From IMG/VR virus record IMGVR_UViG_3300030103_001041, positions 1 to 24,669 of that record: a stretch of DNA of 24,669 nucleotides, one strand, 5' to 3'. Every line of letters begins with the position of its first letter. Position 1 is the first letter of the stretch. The DNA is from a virus. Both the position numbers and the translations under genes were made by a program. Below, in pieces: positions 3,055 through 23,427 of this stretch. Below the pieces are notes generated by a model. The model saw only the letters and a program-made list of their open reading frames with translations. It was not told the origin of the DNA and searched no databases.

Positions 3055-5885
3055 TGGCATTATTATCATCAGTATTTGGAAGTGCATTAGGAGCAGCTGC
3101 AAAAGTAGGCTCAAGAGAAATACGGGAATCTCGTGAAAGAGATAGACTCTCTATGGAGGAGTTTAAAAAGAATGTGCAAGCAAAGAAAGCAGCATTTGCG
3201 AAGCAGCAAGCTGCAGCACAAAAGAAAGCAAGTGAGATTGACACTGTTGCAAAGTTTTTAGGTGGTATGGATGAATACAAAGGGCTCAATGCAATGGAGC
3301 TCAATGATTTAGCTATACAGTTAGACGGCATGTCTGGTGATAAAAGTGCAATAGAATTCTACACAAACAATATTAAAGACGGCACACTAACTCTACAGCC
3401 TGCTGTAAGAAGAGCTGTTACTCAGAAAGATATAGGATTAGTTGATGGTAAGCCTGTAGCACCTCAAACTGATGTGGAGAGACTTTCGTTAGTGAAAGCT
3501 AAGAGGCAAGGCAAAAAACCATCTACAGTGGGTGGGGCGCCTGCCTCACTTCTTAAGCCTGTCAAAGAAAGAAGTTTCTTAACAACAGCTTTAGTAGGCG
3601 GAGACCCCGGCAAATTACAAAGAGACGCTTTAACATCTATGGGGATGACAGAGGAAGACCTAAATGCTATGATGTCTGCGAAAGTAAACTTTCCAGAGAG
3701 CCAAGATACTGCTTATTTCAAGATAGGGAAAGGTAAACGCTACTCTCACCTATTAGAAAGAATTGATAAAACGCATGAGACTTTACTTAACAAAGCGTTA
3801 GACCCTTCAAATGCTGAATTACTAAACAGGAACAACAAAATATCTGTAGACGTTCCCTCTCAAACAGAAGGCACATACGGTATAGGAGGAGCTCAAAAAA
3901 TACCTGCATTAAATGTTAAAGTGGGGGAACCTGTTAAAGCACAGAAGAATCCTTATTATCACTACATGGAGGTTAAGAATCAGTTTGACTTATTATCTGA
4001 TGCTCAGAAAAATGACCCTCAAAACTTGAGAGCTATGTTAGACACTCAATCTAAAACTATAATGCAGTTCGGCAATGTTAAGGCTAAGTCAGAATTAGAG
4101 ACAGCTTTTGATAATTTGTACAAGAAGCATTACGATAAAATAATAGATAACTATACTGGCACTCCTATTAATACAAGAAATGAAATAAATTTCACAGAAC
4201 GCTTGGCAAACATTCATAGCTTAATGGAAAATAAAACAAACATGATGATTAGTGGCGATTATCGACAAGCTCTAACAGCTATGCACGCAGCAGGAAAAGA
4301 AATAAATAAATTATTTTTGGATATGAAGCCAGAAATAGAGTTAAATGAAAGAAGAGATTCATTAATATACGGCGCAACAAATAAGTTACTTGGAGACATG
4401 GAAGGAACTGCAGGTGTATTCGATAGAATGCGTCCGGGAGACAGAGAAATATTCATAACTCTTAGAGAAAAGTTCAATGAAGCTGTAACAAATGATAATA
4501 GAGTTTTAAACAAAGAAGTGTATGATGCAGCTATGTTAATACAAGGTAGATTAAAAGCACCTGCAGGCACTACAATGGGCGAAAAAGAAAAAAATATGAA
4601 CCTAAAAATAGGTGCTCTTCTTAGTCAATGGAAAGAGGAAAATCCTAATGCCGGAACAGAAGAAATAGCACAAGCAGAAAGATTAATAAAAAGAGACGTT
4701 TTAAATGGTATCTTAGACGAAAGGTTTAAGGGAGCTGACGGAGTTTTTTATCAGCACAGATATGCTTTTCAAAGGGGACCGGATGGCTTTGTGCAACGTA
4801 GATTAATAGAGGTGCCAACAGTTGTTGGAAATGCAGTTCTTCACCCCGGCATGAGTGCAGATGACTGGAAAACGGCTAATGAAAATACAGTAAAATATTT
4901 TAACTCTGGCAGAAATGTAGGCTTTTTAATACAAGCATCACAAAAAGACGGTTTGATATTTGGTAGTATAGCCAACATCAGAAGAAGCTATGGTAATATA
5001 AAAGATACTGTAAGATTAATAGAGAAATTAACTACAGGCACTAGCTTTTTTGCTAACTTGCAAAATAATGATGCCTATCTACAAGAAGTAAATCAAATGG
5101 TAACTGCGTTTGTTGGTGCTGCAAAAGATGAACTGTTTGATGACCCTAGATTATCTGACCAAGATTTAGCATTAGTTATAAATTACATAGGGCTCCTTAA
5201 CAGACCGGGAGAGTTTAATGTTATAGGACAGAGTAACGCTATAGCAGCTCTTATAGGACTTGAGAAAATATTTTTAAAACAGCAAGCTCTAAATGAGTTA
5301 ATAACAAGGGGTAGAAACTACGGTGCAGCTGTACGTGAAGGTGATTACATTGCAGGAACAAAACAAATTAATTTTGAAAAAGACTCAATAGCTAGAAAAC
5401 TATACATGCAAGTTGCTGAAAACAGAGGCATAGAATTAAAGAACTTTATGAACATAGACAACAATCTTAAGTCTGCCGCAAATCCAGAGGGGTTTGCAGG
5501 GTTTAATACAGATAAGATTAGAGAGTATTTTACAAACCCGGCTAACAAATTTGGATATAATAGAAATGGTAAAGAGTTATCTGGAAGAAAAGCGTATGAT
5601 GCTTTTATTGAAACTCTAGAAGAGATTGATGTATCTGTAGAATATGCTCTTAAAGGCGCTAACGAATATGTAACCTACGGCAACTTTGAAAATGGCTCTC
5701 AGACCTACAGAAGACTAAGTGCTACTAGCGGTATATTACACAGTGTTAGCACAGACAGAGCAGCAATAAATAATACTATTGCCGCACTTAACAACCTTGA
5801 TGATACTGGTGAGTTAGCTCAAAAATATATGGAGAGAGTGCGCAGTGGTAAAATTGTAGCATACGGAGTGAACTTTGGAACGTAA
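3054..5885 (+). CDS. Large (943 aa) probable virion/internal protein
   Basis: The N-terminus (MALLSSVFGSALGAAAKVG) is a short Ala/Gly/Ser-rich amphipathic stretch. A strongly charged coiled-coil segment follows at about residues 23-63, and then a long, mainly helical polypeptide without clear enzymatic motifs. No lysozyme, protease or transglycosylase signature was found by eye. The size, the location between an Ala/Gln-rich repeat protein and an even larger protein, and the helical character resemble the internal-core protein trio of T7-like phages (gp14, gp15, gp16). I cannot show homology, and tail components or other injected proteins remain possible. A TAATG overlap couples it to the previous gene. 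Its last 11 bases overlap the TTG start of the next. Confidence 0.8.
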   Translation: MALLSSVFGSALGAAAKVGSREIRESRERDRLSMEEFKKNVQAKKAAFAKQQAAAQKKASEIDTVAKFLGGMDEYKGLNAMELNDLAIQLDGMSGDKSAIEFYTNNIKDGTLTLQPAVRRAVTQKDIGLVDGKPVAPQTDVERLSLVKAKRQGKKPSTVGGAPASLLKPVKERSFLTTALVGGDPGKLQRDALTSMGMTEEDLNAMMSAKVNFPESQDTAYFKIGKGKRYSHLLERIDKTHETLLNKALDPSNAELLNRNNKISVDVPSQTEGTYGIGGAQKIPALNVKVGEPVKAQKNPYYHYMEVKNQFDLLSDAQKNDPQNLRAMLDTQSKTIMQFGNVKAKSELETAFDNLYKKHYDKIIDNYTGTPINTRNEINFTERLANIHSLMENKTNMMISGDYRQALTAMHAAGKEINKLFLDMKPEIELNERRDSLIYGATNKLLGDMEGTAGVFDRMRPGDREIFITLREKFNEAVTNDNRVLNKEVYDAAMLIQGRLKAPAGTTMGEKEKNMNLKIGALLSQWKEENPNAGTEEIAQAERLIKRDVLNGILDERFKGADGVFYQHRYAFQRGPDGFVQRRLIEVPTVVGNAVLHPGMSADDWKTANENTVKYFNSGRNVGFLIQASQKDGLIFGSIANIRRSYGNIKDTVRLIEKLTTGTSFFANLQNNDAYLQEVNQMVTAFVGAAKDELFDDPRLSDQDLALVINYIGLLNRPGEFNVIGQSNAIAALIGLEKIFLKQQALNELITRGRNYGAAVREGDYIAGTKQINFEKDSIARKLYMQVAENRGIELKNFMNIDNNLKSAANPEGFAGFNTDKIREYFTNPANKFGYNRNGKELSGRKAYDAFIETLEEIDVSVEYALKGANEYVTYGNFENGSQTYRRLSATSGILHSVSTDRAAINNTIAALNNLDDTGELAQKYMERVRSGKIVAYGVNFGT

Positions 5886-15540: not shown

Positions 15541-17589
15541 CTATATAACGTCCTTTATGTCAAGCCAATTTGATCCTATCTTGGCCTCTAATAGTAATGG
15601 TACATTCATTTTTACATTGTATGCTTCCTCTATAATTAAATCTAAATCATTATTCATATCTTTGATTATTTGTATTACATAATTTGTTTCATTAGGGTGT
15701 ACATCAACTACAATAGAGTCGTGTACTGAGTTTACAACACAAGATTGTAGTGGCTCTAGTCGTTCGTTTAGTTCTAAATATATTACCTGTACAATGTCAT
15801 TAGAAAAACCTTGAACAGGGTAGTTCTTAATCATTGTAAAGTGTGTAGGTTGTCCACTCTTTCTTTTAACTACATCAGGAAATGCATATTGTCTTCCTGA
15901 CGGGGTAGTTACTTTTCCTTCTACTGCTTCATCCCCTAACTTCTTATGCCATTTAGCTATGCCTTTATACTTTTCAATAAAATGTTTGTAGTATGTAGCT
16001 TCCGCTTTACTTCTGCCAAAGCCGCTTGCACCAAACAAGGGAGCAAAGGTATGGCCTTTTGCAACTTGGCGTGACGTTTCTTGCCCTGCATCAGTAATAA
16101 CTTTAGCTGTGTAGCTGTGTACATCAAACCCTGTATCTATCTCGTGCATTGCTGTTTTATCCTGTGACAAAAATGCAGCTACTCTAAATTCTAACTGAGC
16201 AAAGTCACAGTCTAGTATCTGACCACCCTCCCAACGAGACACAAATACTTTCTTGACAGGGAACGTACCACCTCGTGGCATATTTTGCATATTCGGATTG
16301 CGTCCACTGAACCTGCCTGTAGATGTAATGTGTTGTGTTAGCCCAACGTGTAAGAACCCATCCTCTTTTAGGTAGTTACCTATGCCATCCACAAAAGATG
16401 AAAGATATGTAGACACCGCAGATAACCTCTTTATGTCCTCTAAGAATTGTATGGCAGAGGTAAGATTACTCGTCTTAGCATACGATATTAAAAGGTCTAA
16501 GTTTGTCTTACTTGTGCTAAAACCATTTGCACTTACCCAGGTTTTGTTTGGGGGATTAAAGCCTAGACCTGCCCACATATTTAGCTTCTTTAGTTGATAC
16601 CCTCGACTTAAACAATCAGGACACTTGCTTGCTTTTTTGAAATCAGAGCCATCCTTTTTCTTTTTATATCTACTTCCTACTCCCTTACACGAAGGACACG
16701 TAAATGCTTTTGTCTTTTTAATAAGAGTACTATTCTCTCTAACTGCCGATACAAATTCTTTTTTATCTTTAGTAAACTCAAACAGGCCAACCCATTCTTT
16801 CTTATCATTTACAGATCTACTAAAAATAACTTGCGAAACTTGCTCTGGACTATTTAAATTGATTGGGGTGTCACCCATAAGTTCTCGTGTTTGTTTAGCT
16901 AACCTTTCTTGGATAGCTATCTTCTCTTGCTCAAACTCTTCTTTTACTCTTTGAAGGGCGACTCTATCCACCCTGATCCCTCGCATATACATTCGGGTAA
17001 GGGTTCTACAGACTTTGAAGGTAATGTCTCGAACTCTATCCATTCCGTAGCTTTCGCTTTGGGTGAACCCTTCGGCAATAGTAGCAAGGAACAGTTCGGC
17101 AGTAGTGTCAACATCACAACCAAGATAATGTGTAAGTTCTTCAAGCGGAATTTCATTTGTGTTATATCCTTCTCTAAAATATTTCTTTAGTGTGTCGTCC
17201 TTTTGAAAGGTTAAGTTTCTACGTTCAGCACACGCTAATAAACTTAAAGGTTGTTTTTGACCTCGCTGCAAGATGTACTCAGCTAACATAGTGTCATAGA
17301 TTTCACCATCATACTTAAACCCACTTGCCCACAACCACATCAAGTCGTGCTGTGCATTGTGCATTATAAGTAAGGTTGTCTGGTCTAAGATAGTCTGTAG
17401 TAACTTAGCATTAGCACCTGTCCTGTCGGTTTGCTCAACGTGATCAAAGGTCAACAGGTATCGTTCCGTAGGTATGTCTACATTTTTAGTACCCACTTGA
17501 ACCAGAAAATTGTTCGGCTCAAAGGGATCTAAGTGTGTCTTACCATTACGTTTCGTAACTGTGTTTTCTACATCTAAAACTAATCTCAT
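15541..17589 (-). CDS. Family A DNA polymerase with exonuclease domain and DnaJ-like zinc insert (HMO-2011 type)
   Basis: This is the replicative polymerase, 682 residues. The 3'-5' proofreading exonuclease is intact: D6 and E8, N78 and D82 (HNAQHDLMW), and Y155 with D159. Polymerase motif A is DCDFAQLEFR (D462). Motif B has R507, K511 and F515 (RQVAKGHTF), where F515 matches E. coli Pol I F762. Motif C is SVHDS (D624). Between the two domains, residues 298-330 hold two zinc-ribbon pairs, C298/C301 in CPSCKGVG and C323/C326 in CPDCLSRG, followed by NMWAGLGFNPPNKTW. A partial DnaJ-like centre in a PolA is, from memory, the hallmark of SAR116 phage HMO-2011 and relatives. Its start overlaps the helicase stop by 4 bases. 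Confidence 0.95.
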   Translation of the reverse strand: MRLVLDVENTVTKRNGKTHLDPFEPNNFLVQVGTKNVDIPTERYLLTFDHVEQTDRTGANAKLLQTILDQTTLLIMHNAQHDLMWLWASGFKYDGEIYDTMLAEYILQRGQKQPLSLLACAERRNLTFQKDDTLKKYFREGYNTNEIPLEELTHYLGCDVDTTAELFLATIAEGFTQSESYGMDRVRDITFKVCRTLTRMYMRGIRVDRVALQRVKEEFEQEKIAIQERLAKQTRELMGDTPINLNSPEQVSQVIFSRSVNDKKEWVGLFEFTKDKKEFVSAVRENSTLIKKTKAFTCPSCKGVGSRYKKKKDGSDFKKASKCPDCLSRGYQLKKLNMWAGLGFNPPNKTWVSANGFSTSKTNLDLLISYAKTSNLTSAIQFLEDIKRLSAVSTYLSSFVDGIGNYLKEDGFLHVGLTQHITSTGRFSGRNPNMQNMPRGGTFPVKKVFVSRWEGGQILDCDFAQLEFRVAAFLSQDKTAMHEIDTGFDVHSYTAKVITDAGQETSRQVAKGHTFAPLFGASGFGRSKAEATYYKHFIEKYKGIAKWHKKLGDEAVEGKVTTPSGRQYAFPDVVKRKSGQPTHFTMIKNYPVQGFSNDIVQVIYLELNERLEPLQSCVVNSVHDSIVVDVHPNETNYVIQIIKDMNNDLDLIIEEAYNVKMNVPLLLEAKIGSNWLDIKDVI

Positions 17590-18812: not shown

Positions 18813-19024
18813 TTTACCTTTCTGCGTCTTCCTATAAATGCACCATCTCTATCCCAACTAATATATCGCATTGGGAGATAACGATAGCACCAACGTATAG
18901 GTTTAGACTTACCTGTATTCCATACTTCCTTTACTGCGCCCCATTCGCCTACTTTAACTAAGCCAACACACGCATCATATTTTATTGGTGGGTTTTTTAC
19001 TTTAACAGAAAGTGTTCTACCCAC
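18809..19024 (-). CDS. Hypothetical 71-aa basic protein between primase and helicase, GTG start
   Basis: Unrecognised. It is basic and aromatic-rich, with four Trp, several Tyr and two Cys (YDACVGLVKVGEWGAVKEVW, WCYRYLPMRYISWDRDGAF) and ends in GRRRKVK. It probably adopts a small beta-rich fold. The only usable start is a GTG at 19022-19024, which overlaps the primase TAG by 8 bases; no clear ribosome site precedes it, so coupling is likely. It overlaps the helicase start by 4 bases. Sitting between the two replisome genes, it may be a loader or linker for primase and helicase, or a nucleic-acid binder. That is inference from position and charge. Confidence 0.65.
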   Translation of the reverse strand: MGRTLSVKVKNPPIKYDACVGLVKVGEWGAVKEVWNTGKSKPIRWCYRYLPMRYISWDRDGAFIGRRRKVK

Positions 19025-19835
19025 TAAGATTACACAAAGTTTTTAGTAACGATATGTCCTCTTCTTCTTTGTATTTTATATCGTTTTTCAAGCGCATAGC
19101 AATAGTGTTGATCCCTGTCCAAGACACAATCTCTCGTCTATATTGCAAGTTCTTGTTTGACGCATCAGGATCAAGAGCCATTATAATTTTTGTATAATCT
19201 TGTATGTATTCAATATGTTTCACGGACATTGACGTACCTAATATAGCTATTCCAGTGACATTTTGACACACACTACATATAGTGTTTGCACTAATAACGT
19301 CCTCGACAATCACAGCAATTCCGTTTGGTTCGCCCTGACACGCAACATAAACATCCGCTTCCCCTGTATAGCGTAACCATTTTGGTTTAGCGTAGTTTAA
19401 GGTTCGCCCTGTTGCATCAATTATAATACCATCCTTTCGGATAGGAAACACAACACGATTATCTTTGACATCGTGCAGCAACTCTACATTCTGCAAGTCC
19501 CACCTCTGAATAAACCCATTTAAAGTATTCCCTTCTATAGGAACTATATATTCTGGCATCAACATAGGACTTTTTCTGTGGCTCGTATCTTCCCAACTCA
19601 TACTCTCACTACTCTCCTTCCTATTTTTTATTCGTTTCTTTATTTCCTGGTGTGACAACCCTTCCTCAATATTACCTTTGATCTTACACCTTTCTTTAAA
19701 ACAGTTATATTTAAGTACACCTTCAACTTTGCTAACACTAAATGAATTTTGACCACGGCAAAAGGGGCAGTCTTGTCTTAGACTTTCCCCTTCTGAAATG
19801 TCTAGGTCTTGAATAAACGCTTTTATACTAACCAT
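19017..19835 (-). CDS. DNA primase (zinc finger plus TOPRIM, T7 gp4 N-terminal-like)
   Basis: With the ATG at 19835 the protein has 272 residues. A zinc-binding domain shows C23, C26, C45 and C50 (CPFC ... NCFKERC). The TOPRIM core follows, with the acidic VIVEDVISA and the DxD of IIMALDPDA. It should make the RNA primers for the helicase-linked replisome and read the template through its zinc domain. I chose 19835 because it gives an 8 bp overlap with the integrase stop, like neighbouring junctions, and starts just ahead of the zinc domain. A further upstream in-frame ATG at 19874 would add 13 residues and a 47 bp overlap. The downstream partner helicase is a separate gene. Confidence 0.9.
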   Translation of the reverse strand: MVSIKAFIQDLDISEGESLRQDCPFCRGQNSFSVSKVEGVLKYNCFKERCKIKGNIEEGLSHQEIKKRIKNRKESSESMSWEDTSHRKSPMLMPEYIVPIEGNTLNGFIQRWDLQNVELLHDVKDNRVVFPIRKDGIIIDATGRTLNYAKPKWLRYTGEADVYVACQGEPNGIAVIVEDVISANTICSVCQNVTGIAILGTSMSVKHIEYIQDYTKIIMALDPDASNKNLQYRREIVSWTGINTIAMRLKNDIKYKEEEDISLLKTLCNLSG

Positions 19836-20730
19836 TAGCGTTTCTCTTAGATAGTGCAGTAGTTGCACCATCAAGAGTATTAACTAAATAGTTCTTAACT
19901 GATTGTGGATTTTGATGCCCTGTTACTTGCATAATACCAAATACATCAACATCACTCTCCACCATCTCAGTTACTGCCGTTCTCCTAAAATCCATTGCCC
20001 ATAACTCAGGGCGAATATTTGCTTCATCCTTAATATCATTAACTAAGTAGGACACTTGCTTATCTGTGTAGGGTCGATACTCTGTACCTCTAACGGGTAT
20101 ACGAGGACAAACGTACTCCGATATACCATCAAAGTCTTCCTTTTGTTGTTGTAGCATCTTAATGAGCCTATCTGATACAGGCAAATGCACTACCGCACCT
20201 CGCTTAGATTGTGTTATATCTATTCGTTTCTCATTAAAGTTAATACTATCCCACGTTAGTTCTCGCATATCCCCGACACGTTGCCCAAAATCGTATGCCA
20301 TATGACACAACAGGGCAATACTTCTATACTTAAAGTCTGAGTACGCAGTGTCCAGGAATTGTTTAACTTCAGAACGCTCCCATTTTACTTGGCGTACTGC
20401 ATCCTTCACAGTGTCTAAGCCAACTAAAGGATTCCTATCCATAAGTTCATTTTGCATAGCATACTTAAACACAACAGAAAGATTACTCTTCCTAATATTA
20501 GCGGTGCGAACTGTATTTTTGCCACCTATCCTTAACCATTGTTCATATGCCGCTGACATATGCTTTAATGATATTTTCTTTAACTTCATATCACCTAGTT
20601 TAACATTATTTTGAACAACAGTTTCACAAATCTTCTTTTGTTGTGCCATATATTCTTTTTGCGTTTTTGTAGATAACTTACAAAACTTAGGTGAACATCT
20701 ATATTGTTCTACCATATCACTTAGTATCAT
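19828..20730 (-). CDS. int: Tyrosine recombinase / phage integrase
   Basis: The protein has 300 residues. The N-terminal part (1-110) is a SAM-like core-binding domain (STKTQKEYMAQQ ... TVRTANIRKSNLSVVFKYA). The catalytic domain has R151 in GQRVGDMRELTW, K176 in QSKRG, R249 in MDFRRT, H272 in TGHQN and the nucleophile Y281 in VKNYL. The usual HxxR motif reads MxxR, so the first His is replaced by M246. It should integrate and excise the phage genome at an att site, implying a temperate option. The ATG sits in an ATGA overlap with the upstream 45-aa membrane microgene, behind an AGAGGAAG site. The end overlaps the primase start. No tRNA-like attachment core is seen nearby. Confidence 0.92.
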   Translation of the reverse strand: MILSDMVEQYRCSPKFCKLSTKTQKEYMAQQKKICETVVQNNVKLGDMKLKKISLKHMSAAYEQWLRIGGKNTVRTANIRKSNLSVVFKYAMQNELMDRNPLVGLDTVKDAVRQVKWERSEVKQFLDTAYSDFKYRSIALLCHMAYDFGQRVGDMRELTWDSINFNEKRIDITQSKRGAVVHLPVSDRLIKMLQQQKEDFDGISEYVCPRIPVRGTEYRPYTDKQVSYLVNDIKDEANIRPELWAMDFRRTAVTEMVESDVDVFGIMQVTGHQNPQSVKNYLVNTLDGATTALSKRNANG

Positions 20731-20864
20731 TTTTTCTTCCTCTTTCTTTTTAATCTATCCTCATAATTTAAATGAGTAATATAATAGCATATTACCCACG
20801 CGCCAACGAATATACCAATAAACATTAAAGGTAAAACATTTTCTCTCAACCAAAAAATATCCAT
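20727..20864 (-). CDS. 45-aa single-span membrane microprotein with basic tail, coupled to integrase
   Basis: The start is MDIFWLRENVLPLMFIGIF. Residues about 10-30 form one hydrophobic segment (LPLMFIGIFVGAWVICYYI), and the tail is NYEDRLKRKRKKK. The positive-inside rule predicts the basic C-terminus in the cytoplasm. The TGA overlaps the integrase ATG in an ATGA. Its ATG is 4 bases after the stop of the 25-aa gene, with no ribosome site of its own, so it depends on coupling. No family is recognised. Small membrane proteins of this shape include phage holin-like, superinfection-exclusion and host-inhibitor peptides; the sequence does not choose between them. Confidence 0.6.
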   Translation of the reverse strand: MDIFWLRENVLPLMFIGIFVGAWVICYYITHLNYEDRLKRKRKKK

Positions 20865-20868
20865 ATGA

Positions 20869-20946
20869 TTAGGTTAGCACAGAATTAATGTAACAAATTA
20901 TAATCATAACAACAACTAAAAGTACTATTGTCCATTTACTTTTCAT
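20869..20946 (-). CDS. 25-aa membrane micropeptide
   Basis: It reads MKSKWTIVLLVVVMIIICYI followed by NSVLT. Nearly the whole peptide (about 6-20) is one hydrophobic segment after a short basic start. It has a strong ribosome site, AAGGAGAT, 4 bases ahead of the ATG, which is the best argument that a frame this short is translated. It overlaps the 3' end of the zinc microgene by 11 bp and ends 4 bp before the next ATG. Function unknown. Confidence 0.55.
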   Translation of the reverse strand: MKSKWTIVLLVVVMIIICYINSVLT

Positions 20947-21073
20947 ACTTATCTCCTTTACATTTTGGGCATATCTCTGGGTTAACATCATCACGAGAAA
21001 AGTTTAACTCGTACACAATACCTTTGCCCTTACAATAAAAACATTTTACTTTACCATTTTCTAACAGTGTCAT
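20936..21073 (-). CDS. 45-aa DnaJ-like zinc-ribbon microprotein
   Basis: It begins MTLLENGKVKCFYCKGKGIV and ends with PEICPKCKGDKYEK. Four cysteines form two CxxC pairs, C11/C14 and C35/C38. The first lies in CFYCKGKG, a perfect DnaJ-type CxxCxGxG; the second in CPKCKGD. With 20 residues between pairs it should bind one zinc ion and fold as a ribbon. The polymerase of this phage carries a similar two-pair insert (CPSCKGVG ... CPDC). The start lies 23 bp inside the upstream coiled-coil microgene, with a GGGAG about 10 bases ahead. Function unknown; a zinc-dependent binder of the replisome or of a host chaperone partner is possible. Confidence 0.65.
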   Translation of the reverse strand: MTLLENGKVKCFYCKGKGIVYELNFSRDDVNPEICPKCKGDKYEK

Positions 21074-21182
21074 TTTTACTTTGCTCCCGATGTAATTCAC
21101 GTTGTTCCAGGATTAATAGTCTCTCCTTGATGCATCTAACTTGAGCGATCAATGATGCTATCTGCTTTTGATCTTCAGTCAT
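21051..21182 (-). CDS. 43-aa coiled-coil microprotein
   Basis: It reads MTEDQKQIASLIAQVRCIKE followed by RLLILEQRELHREQSKNDTV and RKW. Hydrophobic residues fall at heptad-like spacing (I8, L11, I12, V15, I18, L22, L25) without Pro or Gly, so one amphipathic helix or dimeric coiled coil is expected. A strong AGAGGAGAG site lies about 7 bases ahead of the ATG. It overlaps the 100-aa gene upstream by 8 bp and the zinc microgene downstream by 23 bp. Unrecognised; probably a regulatory or adaptor peptide. Confidence 0.6.
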   Translation of the reverse strand: MTEDQKQIASLIAQVRCIKERLLILEQRELHREQSKNDTVRKW

Positions 21183-21477
21183 AATTTTCTCTCCTCTCTG
21201 CATAGTGTACGCCCCTTCTAAAAGCTACTTCTACAATATAAACTTGATCGGACGAAAGTCCACACCCCTCAAGCTCTTCACGCATTTTGTCTGCCCAATC
21301 AACGGTTTCAGCTTGTGCCTTATCACGCTCTGTAAGGTAGCATTTATAATCAACCAACTCTTTATCTCCTTTTTCAATTTGTTTTAACCTACGTAAATAC
21401 GCTTTCTTATCTGCTAATATTTTAAGTAGTTGTTTAGTTTCAAACTCAATGTTCTCTATCTCTCCGCACACACTCAT
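21175..21477 (-). CDS. Hypothetical 100-aa coiled-coil protein
   Basis: Highly charged and almost entirely helical. Residues 5-40 (EIENIEFETKQLLKILADKK) form a coiled coil, followed by a second helical part (RDKAQAETVDWADKMREELEG) and a C-terminal SSDQVYIVEVAFRRGVHYAERRENYD. No family is recognised. The ATG overlaps the TGA of the methyltransferase gene (ATGA). The 3' end overlaps the 43-aa coiled-coil microgene, so it heads the microgene chain that leads into the integrase. Confidence 0.75.
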   Translation of the reverse strand: MSVCGEIENIEFETKQLLKILADKKAYLRRLKQIEKGDKELVDYKCYLTERDKAQAETVDWADKMREELEGCGLSSDQVYIVEVAFRRGVHYAERRENYD

Positions 21478-22454
21478 ACTTCCATCCCTCCTAATAAATG
21501 CGATATAACTGGTATCGTAAAGCCGTTACCTATCATACGAAACCTCTGAGTATTACTAACGTGATTAGTGTAATTAGGTGGCATACCTTGCAGACGCTCT
21601 ACTTCAAGCGGTAAAAGTTTACGCCACATAGGTTTGTCTTTAGTCTCAACTAAAACCTTTGGCTCTAAGTTACCACCCGATGCGGCACATACTGAGGGTG
21701 ACTTACCTTTGCGGTGGTAGACCCTACGATTGTAGCCGTGTCCCTTCAAATCGGCATCACCTACGTGCGCTAGCCCTTCTGGTGAAAACACTAGTTGTCG
21801 TCTATGTTTCTCGAAGTAAGACTTCAAGTTACCACCCTTGAAATAGTTAGCATCTATGCAGAAACTTTTATCTCTGTCAGCAAAGTAACCATCAGGTTCC
21901 AATATATCTTGTAAGACTACGCCCTTATCTTTTGGCAACTCAGTCTGAGGGATGTTTGTCCAATAATATCTGACACGATTCTGTGCAGTAAAATGAGATG
22001 AATTTATCTTGATAGGTTGGACCCCCAATGCGTCAGATATAATATCCATATTACTTTGTTTCATTCGCACATTCTCAAGTAGAAAGTATTTAGGTTTAAA
22101 CTCCTTTAGTAGTCTAACATACTCAAAGAACAACGAAGAACGTGTTCCAGGAATTAATCCTTTCTGATGCCCTGCGAATGAGACATCCTGACAAGGTGAA
22201 CCACCAATCAATAGATCAAAGGGGTTTTTATCTAAATAAGATTCTCTGTACAAATCCCTAGAAAATTCTCTTACATCTCCCATCTGCCACACTGTGTTGC
22301 CCCAGTTCGCTTGTGAGACTGTGTTAGCGTACTTGTCAGTCTCTAAGCTAATGTATGTTTTAACTGGTATGTTGCTCTCTATAAGGGCAAGCAATGCCCC
22401 CGAACAACCATTGAACGGAGACAATACATTTATTCCATTAGGTGTTAATCTCAT
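21474..22454 (-). CDS. C5-cytosine DNA methyltransferase
   Basis: The protein has 326 residues and transfers a methyl group from SAM to cytosine C5 in DNA. Motifs appear in order: I LSPFNGCSGALLAL (11-24), IV GGSPCQDVS with the catalytic C88, VI ENV (127-129), VIII QNRVRYYW (158-165), IX PLEVERLQGMPPNYT and X IGNGFTIPV with N310. The target-recognition part between VIII and IX is about 110 residues, normal for a single-specificity enzyme; the target cannot be read by eye. No cognate restriction gene is adjacent, so it probably protects phage DNA or alters gene expression. The ATG is 3 bp after the 66-aa gene. Confidence 0.94.
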   Translation of the reverse strand: MRLTPNGINVLSPFNGCSGALLALIESNIPVKTYISLETDKYANTVSQANWGNTVWQMGDVREFSRDLYRESYLDKNPFDLLIGGSPCQDVSFAGHQKGLIPGTRSSLFFEYVRLLKEFKPKYFLLENVRMKQSNMDIISDALGVQPIKINSSHFTAQNRVRYYWTNIPQTELPKDKGVVLQDILEPDGYFADRDKSFCIDANYFKGGNLKSYFEKHRRQLVFSPEGLAHVGDADLKGHGYNRRVYHRKGKSPSVCAASGGNLEPKVLVETKDKPMWRKLLPLEVERLQGMPPNYTNHVSNTQRFRMIGNGFTIPVISHLLGGMEV

Positions 22455-23376: not shown

Positions 23377-23406
23377 AAAAAAAGGGACACCCCGAGAAAT
23401 GTCCCT
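23377..23406 (-). terminator. Rho-independent terminator of the upstream leftward unit
   Basis: On the leftward strand AGGGACA (23406-23400) and TGTCCCT (23389-23383) form a 7 bp stem with a 10-base loop, directly followed by a run of seven T (23383-23377). It lies 22 bases after the stop of the 110-aa gene. On the other strand no T-run follows, so it acts leftward only. Confidence 0.85.
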
Positions 23407-23427
23407 CTAAATTTATGTAACTATATG

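What the first reader, a model, noticed from the sequence alone, without database searches (positions are those of the whole stretch)
20727..21182. Chain of four overlapping microgenes feeding into the integrase
A stretch that would usually be left empty is fully used by frames of 43, 45, 25 and 45 codons. Junctions are overlaps of 8, 23 and 11 bp, a 4 bp gap, and an ATGA into the integrase. Two have strong ribosome sites (AGAGGAGAG and AAGGAGAT). They encode a coiled-coil peptide, a DnaJ-like zinc peptide and two membrane peptides. Coupling to the integrase suggests a small module acting at the lysogeny decision, in membrane exclusion, or in modifying host proteins.
Basis: partly seen in the sequence, partly recalled or inferred. 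Interest (0 to 1): 0.72.

Follow-up and report, generated by a model that had tools for sequence, protein, structure and literature searches.

The report
Small-gene cassette in phage early operon
The tiny overlapping frames next to a marine phage integrase mostly are real, conserved genes, and one belongs to a largely unannotated family of very small membrane peptides found beside the integrase throughout this phage group; they look like mobile early-operon accessory genes rather than a dedicated lysogeny module.

Summary
In detail: on the minus strand, frames of 43, 45, 25 and 45 codons tile 20727-21182 with the stated junctions; none of 3000 shuffles comes close. The window is an HMO-2011-type podovirus fragment (relatives infect SAR116 and Roseobacter).

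Frame A (one long helix) is under very strong purifying selection (dN/dS about 0.03, dS near saturation) and occurs in about 20 contigs. Frame B (two-knuckle zinc peptide) keeps its cysteines. Frame D (membrane peptide, basic tail) has dN/dS 0.2-0.4. Frame C (25 aa) is weakly supported; it resembles the signal peptide of a larger glycine-zipper protein and may be its stub.

New point: D looks like a divergent member of a ~33-aa single-span membrane peptide family that precedes the integrase in nearly all relatives and is unannotated in the cultured phages CRP-207 and CRP-603.

The integrase/lysogeny reading is weak: in related genomes A plus a membrane peptide sits before the primase or over 2 kb from the integrase, B sits after the helicase, and CRP-3, a proven lysogen, lacks the peptide. 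Best reading: shuffled early accessory cassettes; the membrane peptide perhaps mediates exclusion (inferred, untested).

The parts
21051..21182 (-). Frame A, 43 aa (36-aa core), single long helix / coiled-coil peptide MTEDQKQIASLIAQVRCIKERLLILEQRE...
   Evidence: SD AGAGGAGAG; dN/dS about 0.03 vs L003 and L007 at dS 1.5-2.0; AlphaFold helix 3-42, pLDDT 91; about 20 contigs
20936..21073 (-). Frame B, 45 aa, two-knuckle zinc peptide (CxxCxGxG ... CxxCxG)
   Evidence: both Cys pairs and glycines invariant in 10 homologues; best Pfam DnaJ_CXXCXGXG at 19.6 bits, cut-off 32.7
20869..20946 (-). Frame C, 25 aa, hydrophobic; probable stub of a longer secreted or anchored protein
   Evidence: SD AAGGAGAT; similarity to signal peptide of the 167-aa protein of L093 (pattern-preserving shuffle p 0.002); dN/dS inconclusive
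20727..20864 (-). Frame D, 45 aa, single membrane span with basic C-terminal tail (KRKRKKK)
   Evidence: homologues in L003, L005, L006, L007, L008, dN/dS 0.20-0.40; scores against 33-aa family profile above 200/200 pattern-preserving shuffles
19828..20730 (-). Tyrosine integrase, 300 aa, ATGA overlap with D
   Evidence: Pfam Phage_integrase 6e-22; PHROG integrase 2.7e-39
21175..21477 (-). 100-aa gene just upstream of A; N-terminal about 38 aa conserved and itself mobile (directly before Int in L191)
   Evidence: tblastn 47-79% over the N-terminus; L191 3730-3858
21474..22454 (-). C-5 cytosine DNA methyltransferase, upstream operon neighbour
   Evidence: Pfam DNA_methylase 1.2e-36
19017..19838 (-). 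Primase, downstream operon neighbour
   Evidence: weak Toprim matches; aligned with primases of relatives
23381..23408 (-). Terminator-like hairpin upstream of the gene run; none predicted on this strand between it and Int
   Evidence: consensus match only

Best explanation
The stretch is a run of real, very small, translationally linked genes in an HMO-2011-type podovirus, part of one minus-strand gene run from the methyltransferase through the microgenes, integrase and primase (shown: conservation and order; inferred: co-transcription and early timing). The microgenes are interchangeable cassettes: A plus a membrane peptide is a recurrent pair, while B and C come and go. They stand beside the integrase because the accessory part of the early region meets the replication module there, not because they serve integration. 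Inferred function: the membrane peptide sits in the inner membrane, N-out and C-in by the positive-inside rule, and alters the envelope early in infection. The likeliest single job, by analogy only (about 0.3), is blocking entry of competing phage DNA in the manner of P22 SieA or HK97 gp15. A would be a helical partner or adaptor, and B a small zinc-dependent nucleic-acid or protein-binding accessory. C is probably a remnant.
For: Coding: A window vs L003 dS 1.97, dN 0.05; vs L007 dS 1.45, dN 0.05; D dN/dS 0.20-0.40; Int 0.11-0.17. Order A-B-membrane peptide-Int in 16 contigs, one with an endonuclease-like ORF inserted between A and B, integrase identity 51-100%. Small membrane ORF with SD within 450 bp upstream of Int in 47 of 63 non-redundant loci, against 3/63 other strand, 0/52 upstream of helicase, 2/49 upstream of primase, 6/1260 shuffled; most of the 16 misses have one without a consensus SD or slightly further upstream. 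Present but unannotated in CRP-207 (4362-4460, E 1e-7) and CRP-603. Cassette mobility. At least five dissimilar peptide types fill the pre-Int slot while A stays nearly fixed, as with SieA, whose three types are under 30% identical and two of which showed the same specificity (PMC10883804).
Against: No expression, transcription or phenotype data. In the 63-locus set the peptide does stand near an integrase because the loci were chosen by integrase, and helicase-selected contigs lacking Int were all truncated near the primase, so an integrase-linked role is not excluded. Exclusion rests on analogy, predicted topology and type swapping. D joins the 33-aa family only by a weak profile score (8.8 bits).
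Confidence: 0.6

Rival explanations
1. A lysogeny module: the microgenes are co-translated with the integrase and tune integration, excision or the lysis-lysogeny decision (for example a small excision factor, or a membrane peptide that protects an unstable regulator as lambda CIII does).
For: D/Int ATGA overlap is kept in L003, L005, L007 and L008; a membrane peptide precedes Int across nearly the whole set; integrases of some HMO-2011-type phages are active (CRP-3, PMC6918029).
Against: A plus membrane peptide and B occur away from Int in relatives; CRP-3 lacks the peptide; none of the four has a helix-turn-helix or winged-helix match typical of excision factors.
Confidence: 0.2
2. Host-takeover peptides without any exclusion role: A, B and the membrane peptide each bind a host factor (division, protease, transporter, polymerase) early in infection, as T7 Gp0.4, T7 Gp4.5 or lambda Kil do.
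For: Early-region position, small size, cassette turnover; such functions are known for phage small proteins (PMC11323111).
Against: No sequence link to any of these; the clade-wide single-span architecture with a basic cytoplasmic tail asks for a membrane target.
Confidence: 0.3
3. C alone is a non-gene: the frame is the leftover signal peptide of a secreted protein, translated by chance or only to carry ribosomes into D.
For: Matches the signal-peptide region of L093's 167-aa glycine-zipper protein (p 0.002); L089 has an intermediate 58-aa form; dN/dS of C-type frames is 0.36-1.21 with few sites; D has no SD and starts 4 nt after C's stop.
Against: C has one of the best ribosome sites of the four, and L003/L007 keep a 38-39 aa version.
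Confidence: 0.5
4. Chance open frames in AT-rich DNA.
For: G+C is 31% and the frames are short.
Against: 0 of 3000 shuffles; dN/dS; conservation across contigs.
Confidence: 0.02

Closest known systems
HMO-2011-type podoviruses (HMO-2011, CRP-2, CRP-207, CRP-603; PMC9038755, PMC6918029)
   Same: Gene order methyltransferase - small genes - tyrosine integrase - primase - helicase - DNA polymerase with an internal DnaJ-like zinc module; integrase 40-49% identical; polymerase 57-67% identical.
   Different: Frame A has no match in 50,697 phage records; the pre-Int membrane peptide is present but unannotated in CRP-207 and CRP-603.
P22 SieA and HK97 gp15 superinfection-exclusion proteins (PMC10883804)
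   Same: Phage-encoded inner-membrane proteins; SieA sequence types differ widely while two tested types act alike; P22, like HMO-2011, is short-tailed.
   Different: SieA is about 160 aa with three predicted spans and is made from the prophage; the peptides here are 30-45 aa with one span; no homology and no exclusion data.
Fc02 overlapping exclusion genes olg1 and gene 10 (PMC9936078)
   Same: Small overlapping phage ORFs in a regulatory region with exclusion activity.
   Different: Different phage type and fold; no homology tested or expected; olg1 sits by the repressor, not the integrase.
DnaJ central zinc domain and the partial DnaJ module of HMO-2011-type DNA polymerases
   Same: CxxCxGxG-type knuckles; the window polymerase carries one at about residues 292-333.
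   Different: B is free-standing, has two knuckles of the four in DnaJ, no J domain, and scores below the Pfam cut-off (19.6-21.8 vs 32.7 bits).

Membership tests
[quoted passage not shown]
   Window 15541-17589: exonuclease 35-167, DnaJ-like 292-333 (20.3 bits, below the Pfam cut-off), polymerase 347-676; 57-67% identity to the polymerases of CRP-603, CRP-2, CRP-207 and HMO-2011. The second motif lacks its last glycine pattern (CPDCLSRG).
HMO-2011-type phage | Integrase upstream of primase-helicase-polymerase block | tested here: met
DnaJ / Hsp40 | J domain plus central domain with four CXXCXGXG motifs | tested here: not met
   B has 45 aa, two Cys pairs, no J domain, 19.6 bits vs cut-off 32.7
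Superinfection-exclusion membrane protein | Inner-membrane location | not testable with these tools
   One hydrophobic span and basic C-terminal tail by sequence only
Superinfection-exclusion membrane protein | Blocks infection by related phages when expressed | not testable with these tools
   Needs plating assay
Excision factor (Xis/RDF) | Small DNA-binding protein with winged-helix or HTH fold next to int | tested here: not met
   No Pfam or PHROG match of that kind for A-D; A is a single helix, D is hydrophobic. B's fold could not be modelled (pLDDT 48).
33-aa pre-integrase membrane peptide family (defined here) | Short polar N-terminus, LPL-like motif, one span, basic tail, located upstream of Int | tested here: inconclusive
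   D: position and architecture fit; profile score 8.8 bits beats 200/200 pattern-preserving shuffles, L003 form 1/200, L007 form 5/200 reach the real score

The most novel reading that the evidence does not exclude
A clade-wide, overlooked class of 30-45-aa single-span phage peptides sits before the integrase of HMO-2011-type phages, with several interchangeable sequence types, and acts as a strain-specific exclusion or immunity determinant in some of the commonest marine phages.
Probability: 0.22. Interest if true: 0.65.

Novelty: new member of a known kind. Interest (0 to 1): 0.42.

Why it matters
HMO-2011-type phages are reported as dominant and widespread in the ocean (PMC9038755). Here a small membrane peptide that gene callers missed in cultured members recurs upstream of their integrase, and a 36-aa peptide under stronger constraint than the integrase itself has no match in public phage records. 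Both can be tested in cultured Roseobacter phages. The functions remain guesses, and clusters of small early genes are ordinary in phages.

Tried and rejected
Chance frames: rejected by shuffles and dN/dS. Integrase-dedicated module: weakened by cassette mobility. A in cultured phages: none. Prophages in bacterial genomes by integrase alignment: none found in the scan, so host and integration site stay unknown. Structure of B: model too poor to use, so no fold search was run. Homology of C to the 33-aa family: not above shuffles. Primase scan found only near-identical records and one fragment. A helicase scan to find integrase-less relatives gave only truncated candidates. Full-length coding of the frame that overlaps the NQTFSARN gene in relatives was not supported.

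Full report
Observation. The four frames lie exactly where stated, on the minus strand, with the stated lengths and junctions. A and C have strong Shine-Dalgarno sites, B a weaker one, D none; D starts 4 nt after C's stop. ATG frames of at least 25 codons cover 99% of the 456 bp; none of 3000 dinucleotide shuffles reaches 90%.

Where it is. The window is a 24.7-kb virus record. Its polymerase has the exonuclease / DnaJ-like / polymerase layout that defines HMO-2011-type podoviruses (PMC9038755), and it is 57-67% identical to the polymerases of HMO-2011, CRP-2, CRP-207 and CRP-603. The integrase is 40-49% identical to theirs. Two near-identical contigs exist (L001, L002).

Are they genes? Frame A is nearly unchanged at the protein level while synonymous sites are saturated or close to it (window vs L003: dS 1.97, dN 0.05; vs L007: dS 1.45, dN 0.05), a stronger constraint than on the integrase (0.11-0.17). 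It is predicted as one helix (pLDDT 91). B keeps both cysteine pairs and their glycines in ten homologues, though it differs strongly in sequence between two types. D has homologues in three sequence types with dN/dS 0.20-0.40. C is different: its closest likeness is the signal-peptide region of a 167-aa glycine-zipper protein at the same position in L093 (shuffle p 0.002). That protein matches one of 150 codons upstream of Int in CRP-2 (0 of 2000 shuffles). C may be what is left of such a gene.

Junctions. In relatives A and B overlap as AAATGA, and B's ribosome site (GGAG or GGGAG) lies inside A's last codons. The window has two extra bases at this point, so A reads on for seven codons and the overlap becomes 23 bp. 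The D/Int ATGA overlap is kept in L003, L005, L007 and L008.

Order in relatives. A-B-membrane peptide(s)-Int is found in 16 contigs, with integrase identity from 51% to 100%. One (L005) has an endonuclease-VII-like ORF (PHROG E 2.5e-9) between A and B. The membrane peptide in this slot is of at least five dissimilar types.

Beyond this clade. Among 63 non-redundant integrase loci, 47 have an SD-preceded small ORF with one membrane span within 450 bp upstream of Int; controls give 3/63 (other strand), 0/52 (upstream of helicase), 2/49 (upstream of primase) and 6/1260 (shuffles). Most of the remaining 16 also have one, without a consensus SD or a little further upstream. The common form is 33 aa, M(V/G)S(x)LL....PL....Y....IYLWY.H.KGK. 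CRP-207 carries it at 4362-4460, under a misplaced integrase start and not annotated as a gene, and CRP-603 carries a like peptide in an annotation gap. D scores above all 200 hydrophobicity-preserving shuffles against a profile of this family, so it is probably a divergent member; this is suggestive, not proof.

Is it tied to the integrase? Partly by position, but the pieces move. A plus a membrane peptide lies before the primase in L010, L012 and L013 and 2.6-3.3 kb from Int in L196 and L191; in L191 the pre-Int slot holds a relative of the 100-aa gene's N-terminus instead. A B-type peptide lies between helicase and polymerase in L190-L198. CRP-3, which integrates (PMC6918029), has no such peptide; HTVC033P, which has no integrase, has several tiny membrane ORFs in its early region. 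Because the 63 loci were chosen by integrase, they cannot show that the peptide needs Int.

Mechanism. Shown: A, B and D are conserved coding sequences, tightly packed, and exchanged as units. Inferred: one early transcript (no terminator-like site between the one at 23408-23381 and Int on this strand; weak evidence), translational coupling, and an N-out/C-in inner-membrane peptide. The most economical single function is interference with entry of other phages at the inner membrane, as for P22 SieA, whose sequence types also differ widely. I give this about 0.3; unspecified host takeover is as likely, a lysogeny role about 0.2.

Noticed in passing
L015, L018-L062 and CRP-2/CRP-603 upstream of int (e.g. 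L015 3233-3507; motifs FDDxTHWxG and NQTFSARN): In 30 non-redundant relatives a short frame with the motif FDDVTHWVG overlaps, in another frame and always 94 nt apart, a conserved gene with NQTFSARN (PHROG 3342). In L063 and L064 the two occur apart, so the motif frame seems to be a gene of its own; but beyond the motif it is no better conserved than the third frame and is often closed by a stop.
   Followed up: partly
L093:593-1096; CRP-2 gp16 region: A secreted glycine-zipper protein (about 150-167 aa) sits in the pre-integrase region of some relatives; L089 has a 58-aa form and L003/window only hydrophobic stubs.
   Followed up: partly
CRP-207 (MZ892987.1) 4423-5376: The annotated integrase start appears too far upstream, running over the 33-aa membrane ORF; the homology starts at 4492.
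   Followed up: partly
L005:1029-1679: An endonuclease-VII-like / HNH-like ORF interrupts the A-B junction, as homing endonucleases do.
   Followed up: no
L013 (reading frame ending about position 616): A B-type zinc domain is fused to a coiled-coil-like N-terminus beginning MSxxGEI, resembling the start of the window's 100-aa gene, though the likeness is not significant (E 0.3).
   Followed up: partly
window 15541-17589: The DNA polymerase carries an internal two-knuckle DnaJ-like zinc module; whether B is related to it beyond the motif was not settled.
   Followed up: no
window 19017-19838: The primase of the two otherwise near-identical records L001 and L002 is only 95% identical to the window's, while integrase and helicase are 100%, which hints at local recombination.
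   Followed up: no
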